A program made the translations under genes and the position numbers. From contig JAIOQW010000352.1 of the NCBI GenBank assembly GCA_021108405.1, forward strand, positions 1-37,463: a stretch of 37,463 bases of DNA, given 5' to 3'. This DNA comes from Methanosarcinales archaeon (lineage in GTDB: Archaea > Halobacteriota > Methanosarcinia > Methanosarcinales > Methanocomedenaceae). Positions 8,124-20,744 of the stretch are shown piece after piece. The notes beneath the pieces are model-generated. The model searched no databases. It had not been told where the DNA came from and saw nothing but the letters and a program-made list of their open reading frames with translations. Within the stretch, counting starts at the first letter, position 1. Every line of letters starts with the position of its first letter.

Positions 8124-9704
8124 TTATTCTGACACTGACTCATTGGAGAATAAATTGGAAATAAACTCAATAACCATAGAAAATATTCCGCTTGTTGAGA
8201 CTTCAGTCTGGTTGGCTATTGCCTGGGTTGCATTTTCAGTATTATTAGTTTCATTTACAGTATTATAAGCTTCATTTACATAGATTGTTATAGTATTAGA
8301 AGCAGTCGTACCTGAATAACCATATATATCTGAAAAATTAGCACTAGCAGACGGCAGCAGCATATCTTGTGTCGAATTTATCTTTATTCGATAAACAAGA
8401 CGCTGACTGCCGCCTTCCTGCAAAAAAACTCTTTTTAATCGTGTAATACTATTATTTGATAAAATTGCATTTTCCGGTATTATATCGCTTACGTTGACTG
8501 TAGCTTGGATAGTGCCTGTATTTTTGATATTCACACTTACTGTTACTTCGTCTCCAGGACTTATGTAGGTTTGATCTGTGGATTTAGTCAGGTTGATGCA
8601 TGCTGCGTGTACAATGATCTGTGATTGATTTAAAATCGATGTAGCATCATATTGTTTCCCGTCCAGGCTCCAGTTAGCCACAGCATCAGGGATAGTGTAT
8701 ATCCCATGAGAGAGGGGTTTCATTGAATATGAAAACTCCTTCTTTTTCTTTGAACTTAGATTAAATTCCCAGTCCAGACTTGAATCATCATCAAGTACAA
8801 AGTTTTCAGGAAGATAGTCTGTAAGTACAATACCTTTTATATCTGTTATTCCCGGATTAGAAATTTCAAGAGTTACCAATGCGGTGGAATTAGTTGAAAT
8901 ATTTGAATTATTAGTATAATTATTATAAACAATATCATGGTTCTTAATATAATCACCATGTAGATAAACAGATTCGGTTACTTTTTTTTGTATTTCAAGT
9001 ATTTTCCAGCCTGGTAATATTGTGATCGATCTTGATGTATTGGCAGTGATCCTCTCCCCATCCCAGCTCTTACCAAATACTGTAGATGTAATATTGTATG
9101 TTCGTTGTTCCTTTAAATTGGGAATTTTAAGATAGAATTCTATTTTTTCCGAGCGTCGTTTTGCAATATTATCATAATTAAATTTTAGATTTTTTGATGT
9201 TTGCAATCCATCTGTTTGAATATTAAGTTCTACATCTTTGATACTCCATGTTCCGGTATTCTTTACCACCACTTCTGTTTGAATTATTTGATCATCCGGC
9301 TCATATACCTCTTTATTAATTGAAATTGTTAACTGAAGTTCAGGTACGGCTCGAAAACGTACTTCAATTTCTGCTCTTGGTTTATCCTTTTCGTTGATCC
9401 ATATCCTATTATAACCAGTGGTATTGACTACAGTAACATTGATCTCATCATTATAATTTATCCATTCGTTCCCTGTTATAATATCACTCGCTACCACTTC
9501 TTCATTCTGGTATATTGTGATAAGAACAAGACCGGGGTCTACATAAAAAGCAGATGCTTCTACTTTATATCCTTCTTTTGAGAAACGATCACCCTCATAG
9601 AGTGTATATTCGCTTTCTGATGCCCATTCAATATCCTCTGCTGATGTCGTTTCTATTGATAATAGAATGATAAGCAGTATAAGAATGATTGTAGTTGATC
9701 TCAT
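8124..9704 (-). CDS. Secreted surface protein with DUF11/CARDB-like repeats
   Basis: Signal peptide MRSTTIILILLIILLSIETTSAE; repeats 'NPGITDIKGIVLTDYLPENF', 'NTGTIQATVNVSDIIPENAILS'; many N-glycosylation sequons. Confidence 0.7.
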   Translation of the reverse strand: MRSTTIILILLIILLSIETTSAEDIEWASESEYTLYEGDRFSKEGYKVEASAFYVDPGLVLITIYQNEEVVASDIITGNEWINYNDEINVTVVNTTGYNRIWINEKDKPRAEIEVRFRAVPELQLTISINKEVYEPDDQIIQTEVVVKNTGTWSIKDVELNIQTDGLQTSKNLKFNYDNIAKRRSEKIEFYLKIPNLKEQRTYNITSTVFGKSWDGERITANTSRSITILPGWKILEIQKKVTESVYLHGDYIKNHDIVYNNYTNNSNISTNSTALVTLEISNPGITDIKGIVLTDYLPENFVLDDDSSLDWEFNLSSKKKKEFSYSMKPLSHGIYTIPDAVANWSLDGKQYDATSILNQSQIIVHAACINLTKSTDQTYISPGDEVTVSVNIKNTGTIQATVNVSDIIPENAILSNNSITRLKRVFLQEGGSQRLVYRIKINSTQDMLLPSASANFSDIYGYSGTTASNTITIYVNEAYNTVNETNNTENATQAIANQTEVSTSGIFSMVIEFISNLFSNESVSE

Positions 9705-9720
9705 TTTTCCGTTATATTTT

Positions 9721-9752
9721 AAAAAAAAGAAAACTGCCGTTTCCAGCAGTTT
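9721..9752 (-). terminator. Terminator-like hairpin with T-tract downstream of subunit A
   Basis: Minus strand AAACTGCTG-GAAA-CGGCAGTTT (9-bp stem with one G-T wobble, GNRA-type loop) followed by TCTTTTTTTT. Confidence 0.75.
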
Positions 9753-9760
9753 CTATATGT

Positions 9761-10600
9761 TCATACAGCTTCAACCTCAAAGTTAATACTTCCCTGATAG
9801 GTACCTGATGCAAGTTGGTCCGGATAGTTCAAATAGAAATTATGGTCGGATGTTGCACCGGCACTAATGTCCGAATCAATTACAGTCAGAGTTTCCGAAA
9901 GTACAATATCATCCACTTCCATGTTTGACATATCGATCTGGTTTGTGCCATTGATCAGTGGTGTTCCTTCCACTGATACCTTGATCTTCATTCCAACACC
10001 ATCAGGATCATTATTAATGATCTGGATTGTGTTCAAATCCGATTCAACACGGATGCCAGGTAAAGATGCCGGAAAACTAATAGAAGTGATAGAATTTCCT
10101 GATCCGTCCTTGATCTCAAAACCTGTTAGTGGATTTTCGAACACCTCTCCGACTTTGATACCATTATTTGTCGCAATCGAACCTGTATTGTCGGTTGCAT
10201 TGACGAATACATGTTTAAGAGCACTTGATGATGATATGCTCAATGTACCAATAAAGGTAGCTGTATTGTCATCTACATTACCGCTATGAGACAGGGCTAT
10301 AACCGTATCATCTTGGCTAATGGTTGTGTCATCGGAGAGTATCAGTTCAACTGTTGCGATATCTGATACACCATCGTTGTCTCTTACATTAACGGCAAAG
10401 TCAATTGGTTCCCCGGTAAAGCCGTAAGGAATTAAATAGTCTCTCTCAACTCCAGGGGTTGCTGTAAAACTTGAACTGTTTATTACAGGATCGGCAGCAG
10501 GGTCTAAGACGGCTGCTTCCGTAACATATGTTTCAGTAATCCCGGTAGCCTGTGCTACTGTTAGTATGAGTATACCCAGAAGCAAAATTTGCATTTTCAT
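9761..10600 (-). CDS. Secreted beta-domain protein, module A 'subunit'
   Basis: Start at MKMQILLLGILILTVAQATG with GGGAGG Shine-Dalgarno; Ig-like 'NVRDNDGVSDIATVELIL'; C-terminal 'LASGTYQGSINFEVEAV' as in modules B and C. Confidence 0.65.
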   Translation of the reverse strand: MKMQILLLGILILTVAQATGITETYVTEAAVLDPAADPVINSSSFTATPGVERDYLIPYGFTGEPIDFAVNVRDNDGVSDIATVELILSDDTTISQDDTVIALSHSGNVDDNTATFIGTLSISSSSALKHVFVNATDNTGSIATNNGIKVGEVFENPLTGFEIKDGSGNSITSISFPASLPGIRVESDLNTIQIINNDPDGVGMKIKVSVEGTPLINGTNQIDMSNMEVDDIVLSETLTVIDSDISAGATSDHNFYLNYPDQLASGTYQGSINFEVEAV

Positions 10601-10685
10601 ATATATATACCTCCCTATTTTTTCTTTTGTATTATTTTTTAAATTAGTTTGTTTTTCTTTATTTTGATAGATTTTTTTCACTTTA

Positions 10686-11600
10686 TTAAATAACCTGTTT
10701 TATAATAACCAATAGCAGTATCATTATAATACCAATCACAAGAATATATGTGATTTTGCTCGTGTTTTTATTAGAAGCAGTATTTATTTCTTCCGTTACT
10801 GTACTGTTGTGTGTGATGGTGGGTGTTGGTGTTGATTTGAGAGAGTCTCGAAGAATTATTATAAATTCATGGTTATTATCATACAGTATTTCGTCATAAA
10901 GTCCGATCTCAATATTTGCTGTATAATTTCCTGTTCCTTGTCCTGTCGAGTCCCATACCAATTCAAGTACCTGTTTATTATGTGCGGTGACCTCGGTACT
11001 ATTTACAGATATGGTATCCACTATTTCATTGTTCTTTATTATTGCAGCAGTGAAATACGGTGAAGCTACAACATTACCAGTATTTTCAAATTCTACTGTA
11101 ATTACGAGTGGTTCATTAACGCTGATATCATGAACTGTAACATTGGTAACAGACCCGCTGGGCTGTTCTCCATATACATTGACCGTTACTTTTGTACTGG
11201 CTGAAAAGCTAACCCCGGAACCGGTCACATCACTTGATTCCTGTACGCTGCAAAAGGATGAAAGTATCTTTCCCTGATATGTTCCAGGACCTTTAGCTGA
11301 TATTGAAACCAAAATGGTTTGTTTATTATCTGGTTGGAGGATAAAATTATTATCACTAAAATTGATCCTTATTATATCTGAGTCATTGATATCTCCCTGG
11401 GTGCTGAAATGAACCTGCAATGGTACTATGTCGGTGTTTTGTACTATCAAGTTGCATTTCCTGGCCTCTTTAAAATCTTGTGAGGCGACCGTGTCGATTA
11501 TAATTACTCCTGGTCCGGCGGCTGCGCTTATGGCTTGTGATGAGTCTGTGTGTATTATTAAACTTATGAATATAAGCAGAAACATAACTTTTTTATTCAT
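10686..11600 (-). CDS. Membrane-anchored CARDB-type protein, module A 'anchor'
   Basis: Start at MNKKVMFLLIF with AGGAGG SD; beta-rich N-domain, CARDB-like 'EPLVITVEFENTGNVVASPYFTAAII', C-terminal TM ITYILVIGIIMILLLVIIKQVI. Confidence 0.68.
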   Translation of the reverse strand: MNKKVMFLLIFISLIIHTDSSQAISAAAGPGVIIIDTVASQDFKEARKCNLIVQNTDIVPLQVHFSTQGDINDSDIIRINFSDNNFILQPDNKQTILVSISAKGPGTYQGKILSSFCSVQESSDVTGSGVSFSASTKVTVNVYGEQPSGSVTNVTVHDISVNEPLVITVEFENTGNVVASPYFTAAIIKNNEIVDTISVNSTEVTAHNKQVLELVWDSTGQGTGNYTANIEIGLYDEILYDNNHEFIIILRDSLKSTPTPTITHNSTVTEEINTASNKNTSKITYILVIGIIMILLLVIIKQVI

Positions 11601-12342
11601 GATCCTCCTGATCCTTTTTAATTTGAAATTATAATTATATTGTGAAAAAGAAAACATATTCTTTTTTTTCGTATAATTTTTTTATATTACATATATCATA
11701 TTCTTTCATGTACATAGTTAATACCTGATTTAAACAGGGTGAATAACTAGTAAGGCCCTATTACCGCCATCAAGAACTCTAAATATTGAAATCATTGATA
11801 TTACTAAATAATATAATATTACTACTAATAAGAATATTAAATGAATAGCAATACCTACTCTAATATGCAGTATAAGTAGAATAGCTTAGTGCATAGCCAT
11901 ATTTAAAATAGTACGAATATGCAATATTAAGTAGAAAGGTACCCTTCAATAATCTTCCGGATATGAATAACACACACCATTGGTTATCTTATTATCTCTA
12001 TTTTAAACATGTTTTAATTTATTAGTATAAACTTATCTAAAATATATACTGTTTAGTATTTTGAATTTCATATATTTCAAATTCCAATTATTAAATTGGA
12101 CTTTTGGAAATATGTAACAAAGTAATATAGCATTTATGACTATTCTTAAGATGGAATTTATTAGTAACGTAGCTTTCGAATATAGTAATTAATCCTTATC
12201 TTTTTATTCATTATTACAATCCGCCAATAACTATATGAATTTAATACTATGTACAATTTGGATTCCAAGTATTGGGATTCTTAATGGGTTGACAAGTAAA
12301 AAATAAATAACCTATTAAAAATAATTGAAAGGAGAGAAAAAT

Positions 12343-13305
12343 ATGAATAAAATAAATTCAATGTTAGTTGCATTGGTTATGGTAATGGGAGTGTTTGCCC
12401 CTCTGGTATCAGCCGATATAGTAACAACTGAAGCAGTATTGAGCGGCGGATCACTAGACCCTATAATTCATGAAATGTTTGTTTGGGATTATGATGAAAA
12501 TACTAATATGAATGAAATCATACCAGAACCAGGATCAGGAAATGATGAGGTATGGAAAACATTTTATAAATATGTAATAGTATCAGATCCAAATGGTATA
12601 TCTGAACTCGCTACAGTATTTGAAGAGCTTAGAGACCCTGCTGGTAATCCGCTTACAACTGAAGCTGAGATGGTAGATATTACTTGGACTAGTGAAGTGA
12701 ATGATGTAATTGATCAAGCCTTAGCATGTGGTGTGATAACTCAAGCTGAATATGATGAATATGAGTGGGGACTTCGCCCAGACAAACTGCAATATAAAAT
12801 GTATAAGATTGCAAATGAACTAAACAACCATCATGAACCTGGTGATTATATAGTCTATTTTAAAGTAGTTGACAATACTGGTAAATTTTCAGAAAATACA
12901 TGCACTTTCGCCTACATAGGTATTAATGCTATGGAAATTGACTTTAATAACGTTAATTATGGCGAAATTCAAGTTGAATCAGAAAAGACGATAGCTGGTG
13001 ATGAAACTTTTGATCCCACAGGTACCAGCGATAAACCAACAATCAAAAACCAGGGTAATGTAAACATACAAATTAAGGTTTTAGGTGCTGATTTGATTGG
13101 ACTGTACGAACCTATTCAGACAATCGGTGCTTCTGCTCTAAGTGTTGAATTATTGGGCGATCATAGATATGATATATCAAGTTGGGTTACACTCGGTCCT
13201 GAATTAATACCCTGCACACCCACACAGATATGCTTTGATATCAATGCACCTTCTGGAACGACAGCAAATACATATGCAGGTTCATTAAGTATTGTCATAG
13301 CATAG
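12343..13305 (+). CDS. Secreted beta-domain protein, module B 'subunit'
   Basis: ATG at 12343 after GGAGAG SD; signal peptide MNKINSMLVALVMVMGVFAPLVSA; paralogous to the 17671-18663 product. Confidence 0.72.
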   Translation: MNKINSMLVALVMVMGVFAPLVSADIVTTEAVLSGGSLDPIIHEMFVWDYDENTNMNEIIPEPGSGNDEVWKTFYKYVIVSDPNGISELATVFEELRDPAGNPLTTEAEMVDITWTSEVNDVIDQALACGVITQAEYDEYEWGLRPDKLQYKMYKIANELNNHHEPGDYIVYFKVVDNTGKFSENTCTFAYIGINAMEIDFNNVNYGEIQVESEKTIAGDETFDPTGTSDKPTIKNQGNVNIQIKVLGADLIGLYEPIQTIGASALSVELLGDHRYDISSWVTLGPELIPCTPTQICFDINAPSGTTANTYAGSLSIVIA

Positions 13306-13316
13306 AGAGTATAAAA

Positions 13317-13350
13317 ATGAGAGAGAATAACCTCTCTCATCATTTTTTTT
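13317..13350 (+). terminator. Terminator-like hairpin with T-tract between subunit B and anchor B
   Basis: ATGAGAGAG-AATAAC-CTCTCTCAT perfect 9-bp stem followed by CATTTTTTTT. Confidence 0.75.
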
Positions 13351-13463
13351 CCAAGTATACATTCCATAAGAGAATGTTGAGATATTAATTTTAAAACCAA
13401 AATGTTAATATAATATGGTTTTTCATTCATCATTAATTAAGATAATAAAAATGAGGATTTATT

Positions 13464-14642
13464 ATGAAAAAAATTATAATGTTGATTGCATTAATCGGAT
13501 TGGTTTCAATGGTGCAACCAGTATCCGCAATGGGCATAGGTGTGGCACCATCTGAAGTTTCAATCGAAAATGCATTAAGAGGCGGTGAAGCTCAAACTAC
13601 CGTAACTATATTTAATACAGGATCGGAAAATGATACATTCTTACTTTCCGCTTCAGGGGATATTAGTGAATGGGTAAGCTATTATAATAAGAACGATCCT
13701 GAAACAATTATTGAGACTATAGATATACCAGGTAGTGATAAAGTCCAGGTCCTGGCAGTATTACAAATCCCTTCTGATGCGCAGAACGAAAACTATTATG
13801 GTTCACTTGATATAACAACCGCCCCTAAAAATACAAGCACTGAAGGAGCAGGGCAACACCTCATCGTAGGTGCCTCTTCAAAAGTTACAATAGCAGTAAC
13901 CGGTGAACAAAAAATAGATGGAAAAGTAATAGGAATAACAATAGCAGATACCGAACATAACAACCCGCTAAAGGTAAAAGTAATATTTGAAAATACAGGA
14001 AATGTAATAGTTAATCCAAAAATCGATGTTATAATTTACCAGAATGAAAACGAAGTGCATAATTATATTCATCAGAGCACAAAAGTAAAACCCACCTTAA
14101 CAGAAACAATAATTGCCAGATGGAACACCACATCTTCGAATGTACCTGAAGATTATATTGCCAATGTGACTGTTTCACTCGGAGGGCGTACCATTAAGTC
14201 AAGAAATGTACCCTTTAAAATATTACCCTTTGGATCATTGACAAGACAGGGTAATCTAACTGAAATAATCGTCGAAAACGAACCGGTTATAGGCACTCCT
14301 TTAAGGATCGGAGCAGTTTTTAAAAATACAGGAATGATTGAATCCTCAGCTAAATTCAGTGGAGAAGTCTATAGAGATGGTGACTTTATTGACACAATCG
14401 CAAGTGATGAACTGTTAGTGGAAATAAATAAGGAAGTTATGCTTATCTCATATTTTAAACCAGAGTCAGCAGGAGATTATCTAATTAAAGGAAAGGTAAC
14501 ATATGCTGGAAAAGAAACTCCTGTAAAAGAAGTTGCATTTAATGTTACAAAAGTCAAAGGTACGCCTGGGTTTGAAGGCATTTCCGGGGTAATTATGATT
14601 ACTACGTTATTTTTATTAAGGCGTAAAATAAGGAATGATTAA
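13464..14642 (+). CDS. Membrane-anchored chaperone-like + CARDB protein, module B 'anchor', PGF-CTERM-like C-terminus
   Basis: Signal peptide; 'GIGVAPSEVSIENALRGGEAQTTVTIFNTGSENDTF'; two CARDB-like segments; C-terminus TPGFEGISGVIMITTLFLLRRKIRND. Confidence 0.72.
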   Translation: MKKIIMLIALIGLVSMVQPVSAMGIGVAPSEVSIENALRGGEAQTTVTIFNTGSENDTFLLSASGDISEWVSYYNKNDPETIIETIDIPGSDKVQVLAVLQIPSDAQNENYYGSLDITTAPKNTSTEGAGQHLIVGASSKVTIAVTGEQKIDGKVIGITIADTEHNNPLKVKVIFENTGNVIVNPKIDVIIYQNENEVHNYIHQSTKVKPTLTETIIARWNTTSSNVPEDYIANVTVSLGGRTIKSRNVPFKILPFGSLTRQGNLTEIIVENEPVIGTPLRIGAVFKNTGMIESSAKFSGEVYRDGDFIDTIASDELLVEINKEVMLISYFKPESAGDYLIKGKVTYAGKETPVKEVAFNVTKVKGTPGFEGISGVIMITTLFLLRRKIRND

Positions 14643-14663
14643 ATGGGTTTTTGAGATAAAAAA

Positions 14664-15917
14664 ATGAAGCAAATCTTACTTTCTTTTTTTATTCTATTAC
14701 TTTTAAGTATCGTAATAATGGGTTGTGTAGATCTGTTACAAACTGATACTGGTAATGATTATTATATTGAACATTCAATTATATTAAATACTAATGATAG
14801 CTATTACGCAGATCAACCTCAAATAAATAAAAATAAGGTTGTATGGACTGCAAATGATGGAAATGATTATGAAATATATTATTGGAACGGTACATTAAAT
14901 TCTAAAGGAGAGCCATCTGAAATTATTAAAATTAGCAATAATAGCTATCGTGATATTCACCCAAAAATTAATGCAGGTAGAGTTGTATGGATTGGTTATG
15001 AAAATATGACATCCCATATTTTTTACTGGGATGGTACTTTTAATTTGAATGGTACACCGATTGAACCGATAAAAATGAATAATGATCATCTTAATGTAAT
15101 TAATCCTGACATATACGAGGGTGAAATAGTATGGAAAGGATTTAATGATGATAGACTTGATATTTACTACTGGAATGGGACATATTATTCTAATGGTTCT
15201 CCAACTAATCCAAAGAAAATTTCTAATAGTGATCTTCGGGACTATTGCCCTATAATAAACGAAGATTTGATCATTTGGCGTGAATTTGATGGAAGAGACT
15301 ATGAGATATGTTTTTGGAATAAAACCTCTGGTTTGAATGGTAATCATGACCAAATAAAACGCACTAATGCAAATTCTTCCTCATATTATACTACGATATC
15401 ACAAGGAAAAGTAGTCTGGCAAAGATCAGATGGTTTCGACTCGGAAATTTATTTTTGGGATGGAAAATATGAAAAAAATGAAATTCCGGAACCAGTACAG
15501 ATTAGCAATAACACATATGATGACCTTTTTCCACAAATCTGTGCTAACAGAGTTGTTTGGGAGGGATTAATTAATAATAAACAAGGAATTTATTATTGGG
15601 ACGGGTCATTCGAATCAAATAGAAAACCAACCGAACCAATATTGATCAGTAATGATTCTTTTGATAATTATGCCCCAAAAATTGATGGGAATTGTGTTGT
15701 TTGGGTAGGTAATACAGGTAATTATAAGGGTATATACTATTGGGATGAGAGATTTAATAACGATGGTAGACCGATTGATCCTATATTGATAAGTAAAAAA
15801 GGGTCAAATAGTAACTCTCCTCAGATCAATGATGATAAAATAGTATGGGTTGGATCTGAAAACGGGACAAATATGATATATTACCTTGATCTGAATATTA
15901 GTAAAAATTATAAATAA
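14664..15917 (+). CDS. Lipoprotein with eight TolB-like beta-propeller repeats
   Basis: Lipobox-like LSIVIMGC; eight repeats of the pattern 'P.I....VVW.G.....IYYWDG.....G.P..PI.ISN.S.D'. Confidence 0.75.
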   Translation: MKQILLSFFILLLLSIVIMGCVDLLQTDTGNDYYIEHSIILNTNDSYYADQPQINKNKVVWTANDGNDYEIYYWNGTLNSKGEPSEIIKISNNSYRDIHPKINAGRVVWIGYENMTSHIFYWDGTFNLNGTPIEPIKMNNDHLNVINPDIYEGEIVWKGFNDDRLDIYYWNGTYYSNGSPTNPKKISNSDLRDYCPIINEDLIIWREFDGRDYEICFWNKTSGLNGNHDQIKRTNANSSSYYTTISQGKVVWQRSDGFDSEIYFWDGKYEKNEIPEPVQISNNTYDDLFPQICANRVVWEGLINNKQGIYYWDGSFESNRKPTEPILISNDSFDNYAPKIDGNCVVWVGNTGNYKGIYYWDERFNNDGRPIDPILISKKGSNSNSPQINDDKIVWVGSENGTNMIYYLDLNISKNYK

Positions 15918-15922
15918 GGAAC

Positions 15923-15947
15923 AAAATCCTCTCTTTGGTCGGATTTT
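15923..15947. repeat. Intergenic hairpin-repeat copy R3 (module H1 only)
   Basis: AAAATCCtctctttggtcGGATTTT directly after the propeller lipoprotein gene. Confidence 0.7.
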
Positions 15948-16058
15948 CTTGATTTAACAAAATAAGAATGTATATATATAGGAACAATCATGCCTTAGTT
16001 AATAGAAATCGTATCACTTGAACATAATTGTATAAAATTTTTCATATAAGGAAAAAAA

Positions 16059-16622
16059 ATGAAAAATAACTTGAAGAATCCCGTCATTCAGGTAGAATAT
16101 AAAAATCCTGAAAAACCTAAATTATCAAAAAGTGAGATTTTCGGGTTACTACAAAATGATCGAAGACGAAATACTATTGAGTTATTAAAAGCCAACGGCA
16201 GCCAGAGTCCCAGGTTTATTTCAGAAGAAATAGCCCGTTTAGAGTCAGGTATGGAAGAGCCAAGTAGTAACATACGCAAAAGCATATATGTCTCACTTCA
16301 TCAGACACACCTGCCCAAGATGGAGAATATGGGTATTCTTATCTATGACAGGAAAACAGATGAGATAAGACTTACCTCTGTAATTAATGATTTTGATATC
16401 TACCTGGAGACAGTAAAGAAAGGAGATATCTCATGGGGCCAGTATTATCTGGGTCTTAGTATTTTCTTTTTGGTGGGCAGTATGGGTATAGTAGCAGGTA
16501 TTATTACCTGGATATCAACTGCACAATGGATGATCTTTATTAATATCGTATTTGTTGTATCAGCCGCAGCCCATGTCAGGCAGATGAATAGTGTAAACGA
16601 AAAAAAGATTCCGGATAGCTAA
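16059..16622 (+). CDS. DUF7344-type HTH regulator with two C-terminal TM helices
   Basis: 'SEIFGLLQNDRRRNTIELLKANGSQSPRFISEEIA...RKSIYVSLHQTHLPKMENMGILIYDRKTDEIRLT', then YYLGLSIFFLVGSMGIVAGIITWISTAQWMIFINIVFVVSAA. Confidence 0.72.
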   Translation: MKNNLKNPVIQVEYKNPEKPKLSKSEIFGLLQNDRRRNTIELLKANGSQSPRFISEEIARLESGMEEPSSNIRKSIYVSLHQTHLPKMENMGILIYDRKTDEIRLTSVINDFDIYLETVKKGDISWGQYYLGLSIFFLVGSMGIVAGIITWISTAQWMIFINIVFVVSAAAHVRQMNSVNEKKIPDS

Positions 16623-16913
16623 GTGATGGTAGTAATTTGACATTACTTCAGCAGAAAATTGACTATATTGGTTTGGAATCCCATTTTTTTTAATAAAAAT
16701 TTCTATTTACTCATATCCTGCACAATAATATCATTCATTTCCCTGGTAACATAGTTCATTTTAATTATATTCAAAACTATGTAATCAACCAATAACTATA
16801 TTATAATAAATCTTTATTGGATAGTATAATATAATATAATATATATTATAATAATATTAAACAAAACTTATAGTTTAATTTATCAAAAAAGTAAAGTAAT
16901 ATTTTAAGAAAAA

Positions 16914-17567
16914 ATGAATAAAAAAAAGTTGCTAATTGCACTTATATTAATCATAGCCACTGTATCTATTGGTGTTGGGTTATGGACTTATTTTACCGGA
17001 GGTGATGCAAATACAGAGCAAACCACACAACCGGACGACAAATCCTGTATCAGTGAAAAGACAGACGTTCGGGTAGTAGAATCATGCCAGAACTGGTATG
17101 CAGTAAAAAAAGTCCTTATCCGCGATAGACCATTTGACTTATATCTAATTATCAATAATATTAGTGCCAGTGCAGGAAAAATAGTGTATCTGGATCCTGA
17201 AATTAGTCCGACAGAGGATGTAATATATTCACCGGTAATTGACAGTAATACTACTACTGATCTTATAATTAATAATATTGAAAATGTTACTTATTATGAT
17301 CTATCATTGTACAGGGATAATGGAGATGGGGTGTGGGATCTTGAAGATGAACTTATTAGGGAAGTTACACCTGAGAATACCTTTCTTTCCAGTATAGCAA
17401 AAAAATATGTCCTTGTTGATGAGAATCTTGATCCCGATACTATTTATTGGATAGTCCAGAGATTCCATCTGGATACAGGTGCCGAGAAAAAATATCAATA
17501 TGAAGAGTTCAGCTTTATAATAGAGTTCTTAATTCAAAAAGTAGGCACACCAGCACCTGAGATATAA
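16914..17567 (+). CDS. TasA/SipW-substrate-like secreted protein (candidate fibre subunit)
   Basis: N-terminus MNKKKLLIALILIIATVSIGVGLWTYFTGGDAN resembles SipW-type signals (G.WAYFSDTE); 'YDLSLYRDNGDGVWDLEDELI...L.PDTIYWIVQRFHLDTGAEKKYQYEEFSFIIEFLIQ' resembles the TasA family end (AGNEYQGDS..F.IEF.AEQ). Confidence 0.55.
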   Translation: MNKKKLLIALILIIATVSIGVGLWTYFTGGDANTEQTTQPDDKSCISEKTDVRVVESCQNWYAVKKVLIRDRPFDLYLIINNISASAGKIVYLDPEISPTEDVIYSPVIDSNTTTDLIINNIENVTYYDLSLYRDNGDGVWDLEDELIREVTPENTFLSSIAKKYVLVDENLDPDTIYWIVQRFHLDTGAEKKYQYEEFSFIIEFLIQKVGTPAPEI

Positions 17568-17670
17568 GGATTTATCTCAACATCTATATATGGTAATTGT
17601 TCATTACTCATCATTTATTATCTCATAATAAGCCATTAACTATGTAATTTAAACATAAAAAGAGTATAAT

Positions 17671-18663
17671 ATGAAAAAAACAGTATTATTGTTATTATCA
17701 CTTATCACAATTTTATTTGTGTTCATACCACACATAACAGCAGATATTAATATTGAGGCACAGGTGAAAAGTGAAGATAATCCACCAGTGGTTGATTATA
17801 TATTTGTGTTGAGCGATACTGGAGATATAACTCATGTAGAAGACGGAACCCAGATATTGCCAGAACCAGGTACTGGAAATAATGATGTATTGACATACTT
17901 TACCTGTTACGCAGTAGTATCCGATCCGAATAATGTGGAAGATATACAACAAGTTTATGAAAAAATATTGGATAATAACGATGATCAGGTACTATCCGAG
18001 ATGGCTGCTAATGATATTACAGATACGCCTGAGCAGTCCAATGCCCTTACTGAAGCCTTACAGAGTAATTTGATCACACAATCCGATTATGATGATATGA
18101 TAATAATACTGAAAAAACAGGCAAAGATGTTCAGGATTGAGAATTATCTGACAAATCGTGATAAACCAGGAGATTATAAAGTCTGTTTCAAAGTTGTTGA
18201 CAAAGAAAATGTATATCATGAAGGTTTTACCATTTTTACATACCTGCCTATTAAAATTCTGGAACTGGATTTCAATTCGGTTGGCTATGGTAAAATTGTC
18301 ATCGATGAACAAAAAAAGATAGATGGTGACTCTGATTTTGATCAAGCTGGTAATAGCACTACTCCCACATTAAGAAATCAGGGCAATACTGAATTTATGA
18401 TCAGTATCTCTGCAACGGACCTGATAGGTGAAAATGACCCGCTACATGTTATTCCTGCATCTGCCCTGAGCGTTGAATTTCTCGGACAGCATGTGTGTTC
18501 CCGGTATTGTAAAATAAACCCCGGTCCCGGATTAAATAATGAAGTAACACTGGATAGATATTTAATACCCGGCATACCAACCAGGATAAACTTTGGTGTT
18601 ACAGCTCCATATGGAACACCAAATGATGTTTATAATGGTCAGTTATCCATTTTAATTATTTGA
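17671..18663 (+). CDS. Secreted beta-domain protein, module C 'subunit'
   Basis: Signal peptide MKKTVLLLLSLITILFVFIPHITA; shares 'PEPGTGNNDV..YF..Y.VVSDPN', 'LDFNSVGYGKI', 'NQGN', 'ATDLIG..DP...IPASALSVE.LG', 'Y.G.LSI.I' with module B. Confidence 0.72.
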   Translation: MKKTVLLLLSLITILFVFIPHITADINIEAQVKSEDNPPVVDYIFVLSDTGDITHVEDGTQILPEPGTGNNDVLTYFTCYAVVSDPNNVEDIQQVYEKILDNNDDQVLSEMAANDITDTPEQSNALTEALQSNLITQSDYDDMIIILKKQAKMFRIENYLTNRDKPGDYKVCFKVVDKENVYHEGFTIFTYLPIKILELDFNSVGYGKIVIDEQKKIDGDSDFDQAGNSTTPTLRNQGNTEFMISISATDLIGENDPLHVIPASALSVEFLGQHVCSRYCKINPGPGLNNEVTLDRYLIPGIPTRINFGVTAPYGTPNDVYNGQLSILII

Positions 18664-18765
18664 TTAATATATTCTAAAGTGAATCTGAAATTGTATTCAT
18701 TTTCCAATTATGATTAAAATAATATCATAACATTAAAATGCCATGACCATTCATGAGGATATAAC

Positions 18766-19932
18766 ATGAAAACGGTTACTGTACTAATTGTGTTATTAGG
18801 AATAATAATAAACTTTCAACCTGCATCTGCAATTGGAATTGGAATATCTCCATCTGAAATAACAATCGACAATGTGTTGAAAGGAAATGAGGCCGAAAGA
18901 AGTATTACCATATTTAATACCGGATCGGAAACTACGAATTTTACACTATCTTCCTCGGGGGATGTTTGCAAATGGGTAACTTTTTATGATCCTGATGACC
19001 CTGCTACAAATATCACAACAATAAGTATACCTGGTCAGGAAAAAAGGGCTGTTATAATAAATATCCGAATTCCGGAAGATACTCTTAATGCAAAATATAT
19101 CGGATCAATTGATATTAGAAGTATACCTGTTGCCATAAACAGTAATGGGATGGGACAGCAGCTTATCATAGGGGCATCATCAACAATCAAGTTAATAGTA
19201 ACAGGTAACCAGACTGTTAAAGGAGTGGTAACTGCCATAGTGATCGAAGATACTGAACCCGGTTATCCTATTAAGATCAAAACAATTTTCAAAAATGAAG
19301 GTAATGTTATAGCAATTCCGGGAATCGATGTTATCATTCACCAGGGCAATAATGATATTTTCAGTTTTACTAATGATGAAGTGAGTGTCAAACCTACAAT
19401 AACCGAACCCATTATAGCTAAATGGAGTACAACTACTGCGAATTTGCCAGGAGAATATACAGCAAAAGTGACTGTGGTACTGGACGAACAAATCTTACGC
19501 TCAGATGATATACCATTCGAGATACTGCCAACCGGGACGTTGACAAGGCATGGTAATCTGACAGATATACTTATTGACGATATACCAGCCATTGGTACAC
19601 TCCTCAAGGTTAAGTCATATTTTGAAAATAACGGTCTGATCGAAACATCGGCAAAATTCACAGCAGAAGTATATAAAGATGGAAATCTTATAGATACCAT
19701 CACAAGTGATGAACTTGTAGTAGAAAAAAACGAAGAGATTGAGCTGGTATCTTATCTTAAGATCGAAGATCCCGGAGATTATAAGATTGAAGGAAAGGTA
19801 ATATATGATAAAAAAGAAACTCCGGTAAAAGAACTCTCATTCGAAATTCCGGTGGAATCAACTCCGGGTTTTGGAAGTATATTTACTTTAATAATAATTC
19901 TTATTTTTAGTAGGTTTTATGATATAAGGTAA
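18766..19932 (+). CDS. Membrane-anchored chaperone-like + CARDB protein, module C 'anchor', PGF motif at C-terminus
   Basis: Aligns end to end with the 13464-14642 product; C-terminus STPGFGSIFTLIIILIFSRFYDIR. Confidence 0.72.
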   Translation: MKTVTVLIVLLGIIINFQPASAIGIGISPSEITIDNVLKGNEAERSITIFNTGSETTNFTLSSSGDVCKWVTFYDPDDPATNITTISIPGQEKRAVIINIRIPEDTLNAKYIGSIDIRSIPVAINSNGMGQQLIIGASSTIKLIVTGNQTVKGVVTAIVIEDTEPGYPIKIKTIFKNEGNVIAIPGIDVIIHQGNNDIFSFTNDEVSVKPTITEPIIAKWSTTTANLPGEYTAKVTVVLDEQILRSDDIPFEILPTGTLTRHGNLTDILIDDIPAIGTLLKVKSYFENNGLIETSAKFTAEVYKDGNLIDTITSDELVVEKNEEIELVSYLKIEDPGDYKIEGKVIYDKKETPVKELSFEIPVESTPGFGSIFTLIIILIFSRFYDIR

Positions 19933-19997
19933 AATACCAAAAATATATATTTTCTTAATCCAATTATAATTCCAAATAATTCTATGAGGGGTTTTAT

Positions 19998-20744
19998 ATG
20001 ATAATAAAGAATATTTTAATTATATTGTTAATCATTGCCATATCAATTTTTTTTTCAGGCTGCTTTAAAGCGCCGGATACCGATGGGGACGGACACCGTG
20101 ATCCTGTAGACGATTTTCCCCAGGACCCGAACGACTGGAAAGATTCCGATAAAGACGGAATAGGCGATAATGCAGAGAAAGATATTGGAACCAATCCGCA
20201 TAATTCAGATTCTGATGGTGATAATTATTCGGACGGGATTGACCTGGACCCTTTAAATGGTACAATAGGTATTGATAGTGACGAAGACAGTTATCACGAC
20301 GCAGTTGATGCCTTCCCTGAAGATGCAAATGAATGGGCCGATACTGACGGAGATGGTTATGGCGATAACTCTGATAAATATCCGGCAGAACCATTATACC
20401 ATACTTCAGTACCTAAAAACCTATCCAATTTCTCTTATGAAGAGATAGACCGTGTCACAATATACGAGAATGGGTCATCAGGCACTGAATATACCATATC
20501 AATTACTAATAATGATGATTTTAGCGGTAATTTCACAACAACAGTCTATACTTGCAATTGTGCCGATTGGACTAAAAAGGAATGCATACCAGGTACGCAG
20601 TTGAACATATCAACAGTAGCCTATGTGGGATCAAATGAAACAGAAATGGTAAAGGTCAGGGTTTTTTCAGATTATATGAAACAAACACGCACATTCATAT
20701 ATCGGATAAATGTTACCTCCTCTGAGGTTGAACAACCGGTTTAG
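19998..20744 (+). CDS. Lipoprotein with thrombospondin type-3-like calcium-binding repeats
   Basis: Lipobox IFFSGC; repeats DTDGDGHRDPVDDFPQDPNDWKDSDKDGIGDNAEKDIGTNPHNSDSDGDNYSDGIDLDP...DTDGDGYGDNSDKYP. Confidence 0.85.
   Translation: MIIKNILIILLIIAISIFFSGCFKAPDTDGDGHRDPVDDFPQDPNDWKDSDKDGIGDNAEKDIGTNPHNSDSDGDNYSDGIDLDPLNGTIGIDSDEDSYHDAVDAFPEDANEWADTDGDGYGDNSDKYPAEPLYHTSVPKNLSNFSYEEIDRVTIYENGSSGTEYTISITNNDDFSGNFTTTVYTCNCADWTKKECIPGTQLNISTVAYVGSNETEMVKVRVFSDYMKQTRTFIYRINVTSSEVEQPV

What the first reader, a model, noticed from the sequence alone, without database searches (positions are those of the whole stretch)
8124..20744. Candidate undescribed archaeal extracellular fibre / biofilm-matrix locus
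Ten consecutive genes with surface, secreted or related regulatory signatures sit as a compact island between housekeeping genes. They include three subunit-plus-anchor modules, a TasA/SipW-substrate-like protein, two lipoproteins (beta-propeller and calcium-binding), a DUF11-like glycoprotein candidate and one DUF7344-type HTH membrane regulator. Seen directly: the signal peptides, lipoboxes, paralogy and TM anchors. Known: TasA-family proteins form fibres in bacteria, and related archaeal bundling pili have been reported. Inference: this island builds a surface fibre or matrix in which each secreted subunit has a dedicated membrane-anchored partner. No signal peptidase or sortase gene is present in the window, so processing enzymes must be encoded elsewhere.
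Basis: partly seen in the sequence, partly recalled or inferred. Interest (0 to 1): 0.85.

Follow-up and report, generated by a model that had tools for sequence, protein, structure and literature searches.

The report
Archaeal WxL-like surface docking module
The genes encode secreted proteins, each paired with its own membrane-anchored partner; the partner resembles, in sequence profile and predicted shape, the 'WxL-interacting protein' that Gram-positive bacteria use to build adhesive surface complexes, and the same gene pair recurs across many methane-cycling and related archaea, so this is a widespread surface system that no protein-family database yet names.

Summary
In detail: 8124-20744 carries eleven (not ten) consecutive genes, nearly all exported, including three subunit+anchor pairs. 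The 11-gene island is not conserved as a block, but its pairs are. Full-length anchors occur across the phylum, and at almost every full-length anchor locus inspected (15 strong and 1 weak of 17 outside the home order) the next genes encode a subunit-profile relative, often as small subunit - anchor - large subunit. A five-gene block (subB/C-anc-ancA-subA-DUF11) recurs contiguously in an ANME-2c genome.

The anchors look like archaeal relatives of the Gram-positive WxL-interacting protein (WxLIP: DUF916+DUF3324+TM). WxLIP is the best hit of an unbiased PDB profile search and the top three hits of a PDB fold search with a confident model. The subunits show no sequence relation to WxL and match no family. 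Anchors end in a PGF-type sorting signal, and the genome encodes archaeosortase A.

Best reading: a lipid-anchored receptor that captures a secreted protein through its C-terminal module, displaying adhesive or functional domains. A polymerising fibre is not shown, and G8 as TasA-like is unsupported. New variant of a known kind.

The parts
8124..9704 (-). G1: secreted protein with DUF11/BatD-type Ig repeats, many N-x-S/T sites; travels with G2-G3
   Evidence: TIGR01451 E 1e-6; 52% identical homologue follows subA-ancA in L017 and L068
9761..10600 (-). G2 subA: small secreted subunit, signal peptide, C-terminal ...GTYQGSINFEVEAV strand module
   Evidence: 56% in L017; profile link to G4/G9 family C-terminus, P 3e-8
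10686..11600 (-). G3 ancA: anchor with two Ig domains + C-terminal TM, the same domain count as bacterial WxLIP
   Evidence: (52% in L017)
12343..13305 (+). G4 subB: secreted subunit; C-terminal docking module at about 12931-13305
13464..14642 (+). G5 ancB: anchor; WxLIP-like two-domain ectodomain at about 13530-14228, third (CARDB-like) Ig domain, then PGF-type C-terminal signal
14562..14642 (+). TPGF + TM + basic tail of G5 (putative archaeosortase A signal)
   Evidence: sequence; PGF invariant in the six anchors; PGF-CTERM above cut-off in the L017 anchor; ArtA in genome
16059..16622 (+). G7: DUF7344 winged-helix protein with C-terminal membrane segments, probable regulator; the same family flanks the module in L124 and L125
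17671..18663 (+). G9 subC: secreted subunit, paralogue of G4; C-terminal module at about 18247-18663
18766..19932 (+). G10 ancC: anchor, paralogue of G5, same architecture; TPGF+TM+basic tail at 19861-19932
14664..15917 (+). G6: lipoprotein with Methanosarcina-type beta-propeller repeats; inside the island, not part of the conserved module
   Evidence: not seen beside the pair elsewhere
16914..17567 (+).
19998..20744 (+). G11: lipoprotein with thrombospondin-3-like Ca-binding repeats (weak match); 87% identical orthologue at the same site in the sister species, where the contig ends

Best explanation
The island encodes three copies of an archaeal surface-display pair that is structurally and organisationally the counterpart of the Gram-positive WxL/WxLIP complex. 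The anchor is exported, keeps a WxLIP-like two-domain Ig ectodomain outside the cell, and is fixed to the membrane by its C-terminal TM; in G5 and G10 this carries a PGF-type signal that archaeosortase A would swap for a lipid. The separately secreted subunit is captured by the anchor's N-terminal Ig domain through its C-terminal beta module, probably by completing a beta sandwich with a strand of the anchor hairpin, and so displays its N-terminal domain on the surface. Large subunits in relatives show what is displayed: VWA, BACON or Ig arrays. Most likely role: adhesion or cell-cell/matrix attachment and surface scaffolding, switched by membrane or cytoplasmic winged-helix regulators. Shown: gene pairing, profile and fold similarity to WxLIP, sorting-signal sequence, ArtA in the genome. 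Inferred: physical binding, strand completion, lipidation, adhesion.
For: Anchor model (residues 23-258 of G5, pLDDT 92): the three best of 350,542 PDB chains are E. faecium WxLIP 9i25_C (bound to long WxL), 9i1y_A and 9i1y_B, E about 1e-10. The anchor profile's best PDB sequence hit is 9i1y, E 5.6e-4, next 0.041. Profile-profile comparison with seven lactic-acid-bacterial WxLIPs: P 1.6e-6, 225 colinear columns. A Pfam WxLIP_HBD match at E 1.4e-5 in one relative. Subunit neighbours at 15 (strong) + 1 (weak) of 17 full-length anchor loci outside the order, by a profile trained only inside the order. In the order, strong subunit hits in 7 of 186 genomes, all 7 among the 8 with a full-length anchor (hypergeometric 6e-12, relatedness ignored). 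Small-anchor-large order in L116, L118, L119, L122, as in bacterial loci L135, L141. Subunit and anchor tree distances correlate (r 0.56, 0 of 5000 permutations). Read-through subC+ancC model: pLDDT 87, pTM 0.72, above the roughly 0.54 that I estimate for two undocked bodies. ArtA 241 bits beside archaetidylserine synthase/decarboxylase.
Against: TM-scores to WxLIP are only 0.35-0.43 (domain angles probably differ), and multi-Ig queries match many Ig proteins, the margin in E being about 20-fold. Subunits show no detectable WxL homology (hhalign P 0.011 and 0.08) and no significant PDB match. Window anchors fall below the curated PGF-CTERM cut-off (11.4 of 18.8 bits for G10). No PAE or coordinates were available, and the fused model forces proximity. 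One full-length anchor stands alone (L114) and one subunit is alone (L016). No experiment.
Confidence: 0.66

Rival explanations
1. TasA/AbpA-type fibre: the subunits polymerise by donor-strand exchange into an extracellular filament and the anchors cap or root it.
For: Secreted Ig-like subunits with conserved terminal strands; the anchor model also resembles donor-strand fimbrial chaperones and RbmA; in Archaeoglobus-like genomes the pair lies beside a DUF1102 protein weakly like a solved 'Pilin'.
Against: No Peptidase_M73/TasA family in this genome; G8 is unrelated to DUF1102; every subunit has its own anchor, about 1:1 in genes; the closest fold is WxLIP, not TapA or AbpA.
Confidence: 0.15
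2. Unpaired surface Ig proteins: subunit and anchor are independent S-layer-associated proteins that merely share an operon.
For: Ig repeats are generic; many archaeal surface genes cluster; one anchor has no subunit (L114).
Against: Pairing kept across many genera with correlated trees; pTM of the fused model is higher than expected for undocked halves.
Confidence: 0.12
3. Membrane-tethered chaperone: the anchor is an assembly chaperone that holds and then releases the subunit into the matrix.
For: Foldseek hits to CfaA and YadV chaperones; small soluble subunits.
Against: The best hits are WxLIP; most anchors carry a signal for permanent anchoring and a third Ig domain; large subunits carry the module at the C-terminus like anchored cargo.
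Confidence: 0.07

Closest known systems
WxL cluster of Gram-positive bacteria (small WxL, large WxL, WxLIP = DUF916+DUF3324+TM; Csc clusters, Elr operon)
   Same: Two-gene and three-gene organisation small-anchor-large; anchor profile and fold; C-terminal placement of the docking module in large cargo; a TM at the anchor C-terminus; modelled WxL-WxLIP strand completion (PMC10599100, PMC9772566).
   Different: Archaea without bacterial peptidoglycan; cargo shows no WxL homology; a third Ig domain and PGF-type signal in most anchors of the order; no LPxTG partner.
TasA/camelysin and AbpA bundling pili
   Same: Secreted beta-sandwich subunits; a DUF1102 neighbour in Archaeoglobus-like genomes.
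   Different: No TasA-family protein here; membrane anchors paired 1:1 with subunits; no sign of SipW processing.
PGF-CTERM / archaeosortase A substrates
   Same: PGF + TM + basic tail on anchors; ArtA with archaetidylserine enzymes in this genome.
   Different: NCBIfam cut-off passed only by the L017 anchor among those scanned.
Cohesin-dockerin surface proteins of ANME archaea (PMC9012536)
   Same: Surface display by a non-covalent module; pairs sit inside cohesin/dockerin clusters in L018.
   Different: Different domains; the pair here has no cohesin or dockerin.

Membership tests
WxLIP (DUF916/PF06030 + DUF3324/PF11797 + TM) | Sequence/profile similarity to both Ig domains | tested here: met
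   Best PDB profile hit 9i1y E 5.6e-4; hhalign P 1.6e-6 over both domains. Pfam curated cut-offs not reached (best WxLIP_HBD 25.5 of 28.9 bits).
WxLIP (DUF916/PF06030 + DUF3324/PF11797 + TM) | Two-domain Ig fold | tested here: met
   Top three Foldseek hits, TM 0.35-0.43: similar folds, probably a different inter-domain angle.
WxLIP (DUF916/PF06030 + DUF3324/PF11797 + TM) | C-terminal TM helix | tested here: met
WxLIP (DUF916/PF06030 + DUF3324/PF11797 + TM) | Gene next to WxL-domain proteins | tested here: not met
   Neighbours are subunits with no WxL match. So 'works like' and probable distant homologue, not filed as a WxL cluster.
WxL domain (PF13731) | Pfam WxL match / WxL sequence profile | tested here: not met
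   No Pfam match; hhalign P 0.011 and 0.08.
WxL domain (PF13731) | WxL fold | not tested
   No prediction of the subunit alone; the fused-model search was swamped by multi-Ig proteins.
TasA/camelysin (PF12389) | Family match in the genome | tested here: not met
   none in this genome; the B. subtilis control rings.
PGF-CTERM/ArtA substrate | PGF motif, TM, basic tail; ArtA in genome | tested here: inconclusive
   Motif visible and ArtA present, but the window proteins are below the curated cut-off.
DUF7344 regulators | PF24035 match | tested here: met
   75.5 bits against a cut-off of 27.8.

The most novel reading that the evidence does not exclude
A general archaeal surface-docking system, homologous at the anchor to WxLIP: lipid-anchored Ig receptors capture secreted proteins bearing a C-terminal docking module, in a long form (this locus) and a short one-Ig form that docks enzymes and beta-helix proteins. 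It would imply that the core role of WxLIP is tethering cargo to the producer's own membrane, not peptidoglycan binding or insertion into a host membrane, and that the system is shared by Gram-positive bacteria and archaea.
Probability: 0.45. Interest if true: 0.78.

Novelty: new variant of a known kind. Interest (0 to 1): 0.63.

Why it matters
WxL/WxLIP has been described almost only from Firmicutes and explained as a peptidoglycan- and host-binding virulence platform; the published model even puts the WxLIP TM helix in the host membrane (PMC10599100). Archaeal relatives lack bacterial peptidoglycan and most have no host, and carry an own-membrane sorting signal in the same position, which argues for tethering to the producer's own membrane. 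The module is present in ANME-2c, Argoarchaeum and Methanosarcina genomes and elsewhere in the phylum, and gives a concrete candidate for how methane-cycling archaea display adhesins in consortia, a question raised but left open in PMC9012536. The subunit has no family in Pfam or NCBIfam, and the anchor reaches no curated WxLIP cut-off.

Tried and rejected
Whole island as one conserved unit: rejected (pairs and a five-gene block are conserved, the island is not). G8 as TasA-like: no match by Pfam, NCBIfam, PDB or DUF1102 profile; only a fragment in the sister species. Subunits as WxL domains: no sequence support. Viral origin: no relative found among viral contigs. First genome-contig scan with a two-sequence alignment found nothing. 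The fold search with the 704-residue fused model returned only generic multi-Ig proteins. Literature: no paper in the held library was found that links WxL or DUF916 with archaea; no proteome hit for guessed Methanococcoides locus tags.

Full report
Setting. The window is one 37,463-base contig of a 3.67 Mb, 99% complete archaeal genome. Its order contains ANME-2c, Argoarchaeum and Methanosarcina genomes (named loci coincide with contigs), so it belongs to Methanosarcinales; the family is not named by the tools.

Observation. Eleven consecutive genes, not ten, lie between a UspA-like gene and a DUF447-like gene (flank names from my reading of the sequences). Ten start with a signal peptide or N-terminal TM; G7 is a DUF7344 winged-helix protein with membrane segments. 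G4/G9 and G5/G10 are clear paralogues and G3 is a shorter relative of G5/G10. The island is GC-poor relative to its flanks.

Conservation. The subunit profile finds 8 of 186 genomes of the order (one of them very weak), the full-length anchor 8; seven coincide. In L015, L059, L060, L061 and L017 the subunit gene lies directly before the anchor gene. L017 (ANME-2c) has a subB/C-type subunit, anchor, ancA, subA and the G1 homologue in one contiguous run on one strand (39-40, 52, 56 and 53% identity for the last four), and L068 keeps ancA-subA-G1. In the window the same five genes are two divergent halves. Outside the order, anchors occur widely (82 of 394 genomes sampled evenly in the phylum have at least a domain match). 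Of 17 loci with full-length anchors that I inspected, 15 have a clear and one a weak subunit-profile hit within three genes, using a profile trained only on Methanosarcinales sequences; one search repeats this with a wider profile that includes some of the loci. Several have small subunit - anchor - large subunit, where the module is C-terminal in the large protein behind VWA (L122), BACON (L016, a lone subunit), or long other regions (L019, L118). Subunit and anchor trees recover the same major clades.

What the anchor is. An unbiased profile search of PDB sequences put E. faecium WxLIP first (E 0.0072 with 14 sequences, 5.6e-4 with 25). A two-domain model of ancB (pLDDT 92) put the three WxLIP chains first in the whole PDB by Foldseek. 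hhalign against seven WxLIPs from plasmids of lactobacilli, Pediococcus, Lactococcus and E. mundtii aligned both domains (P 1.6e-6). ancA has exactly the WxLIP architecture; ancB/ancC add a CARDB-like third domain. The TM-scores are modest, so I call this probable distant homology.

What the subunit is. No Pfam or NCBIfam family, a PKD-like N-terminal half (weak hits) and a conserved C-terminal beta module ending G-x-Y-x-G-x-I/L. No sequence relation to WxL could be shown. One relative weakly matches DUF4402 (E 0.0043).

Interaction. G9 and G10 are in the same reading frame, so reading the stops between them as residues gives a natural fusion. With 32 sequences AlphaFold2 gives pLDDT 87 and pTM 0.72. 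My estimate for two well-folded but undocked halves of these lengths is about 0.54, so the model places them with some confidence; the tool returns no PAE and the linker forces proximity. The strand after the anchor's long hairpin runs from anchor residue 132 in the fused model of ancC but about 136 in the lone model of ancB, a small change in the direction reported for WxLIP, whose hairpin orders on binding WxL in AlphaFold models.

Anchoring and control. Anchors of the order mostly end in PGF + TM + basic residues; the L017 anchor passes the PGF-CTERM cut-off, the window ones do not. ArtA (241 bits) with archaetidylserine synthase and decarboxylase, ArtC and an EpsH-type exosortase are in the genome. 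DUF7344 flanks the module again in two genomes (L124, L125) together with a DUF1102 protein; HTH_45 lies near the module in L015, L059, L130.

Island. Other members of the family have different genes next to the conserved flank; the sister species keeps G11 there and its contig then ends, so presence of the island in the genus is undecided; the search found no anchor in that 92% complete genome.

Limits.

Noticed in passing
L020 4450-7237, L021 4991-7465, L022 15298-17137 (same genome), L067 4835-6077: A short form of the system: a large secreted protein (metallophosphatase-like, NosD-like beta-helix, DUF4198), in three of the four with a shared C-terminal ending, followed by a 160-226 aa protein with one anchor-type Ig domain and TM.
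   Followed up: partly
L018, L019: Subunit-anchor genes sit inside large cohesin/dockerin-type surface clusters of ANME-2c and Argoarchaeum genomes.
   Followed up: partly
L123 9657-10166, L124 3595-4110, L125 3088-3603: DUF1102 proteins lie beside the module; their profile weakly matches a PDB chain named 'Pilin' (9p0a, E 0.01).
   Followed up: partly
L067 1372-3171: A remote G1 relative (27%) lies in a short-anchor locus, so G1-like proteins may serve both forms.
   Followed up: no
L114 6647-7951: A full-length anchor without any subunit neighbour, among metabolic genes.
   Followed up: no
L117 1-2978: Two tandem anchors, one apparently with duplicated domains.
   Followed up: no
L166 4818-5642: An EpsH/XrtA-type exosortase (154 bits to TIGR02602, cut-off 105.55) in this archaeal genome besides ArtA and ArtC.
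   Followed up: no
window 11601-12342: About 740 bases of AT-rich intergenic DNA between the two divergent halves of the five-gene block, likely the shared control region.
   Followed up: no
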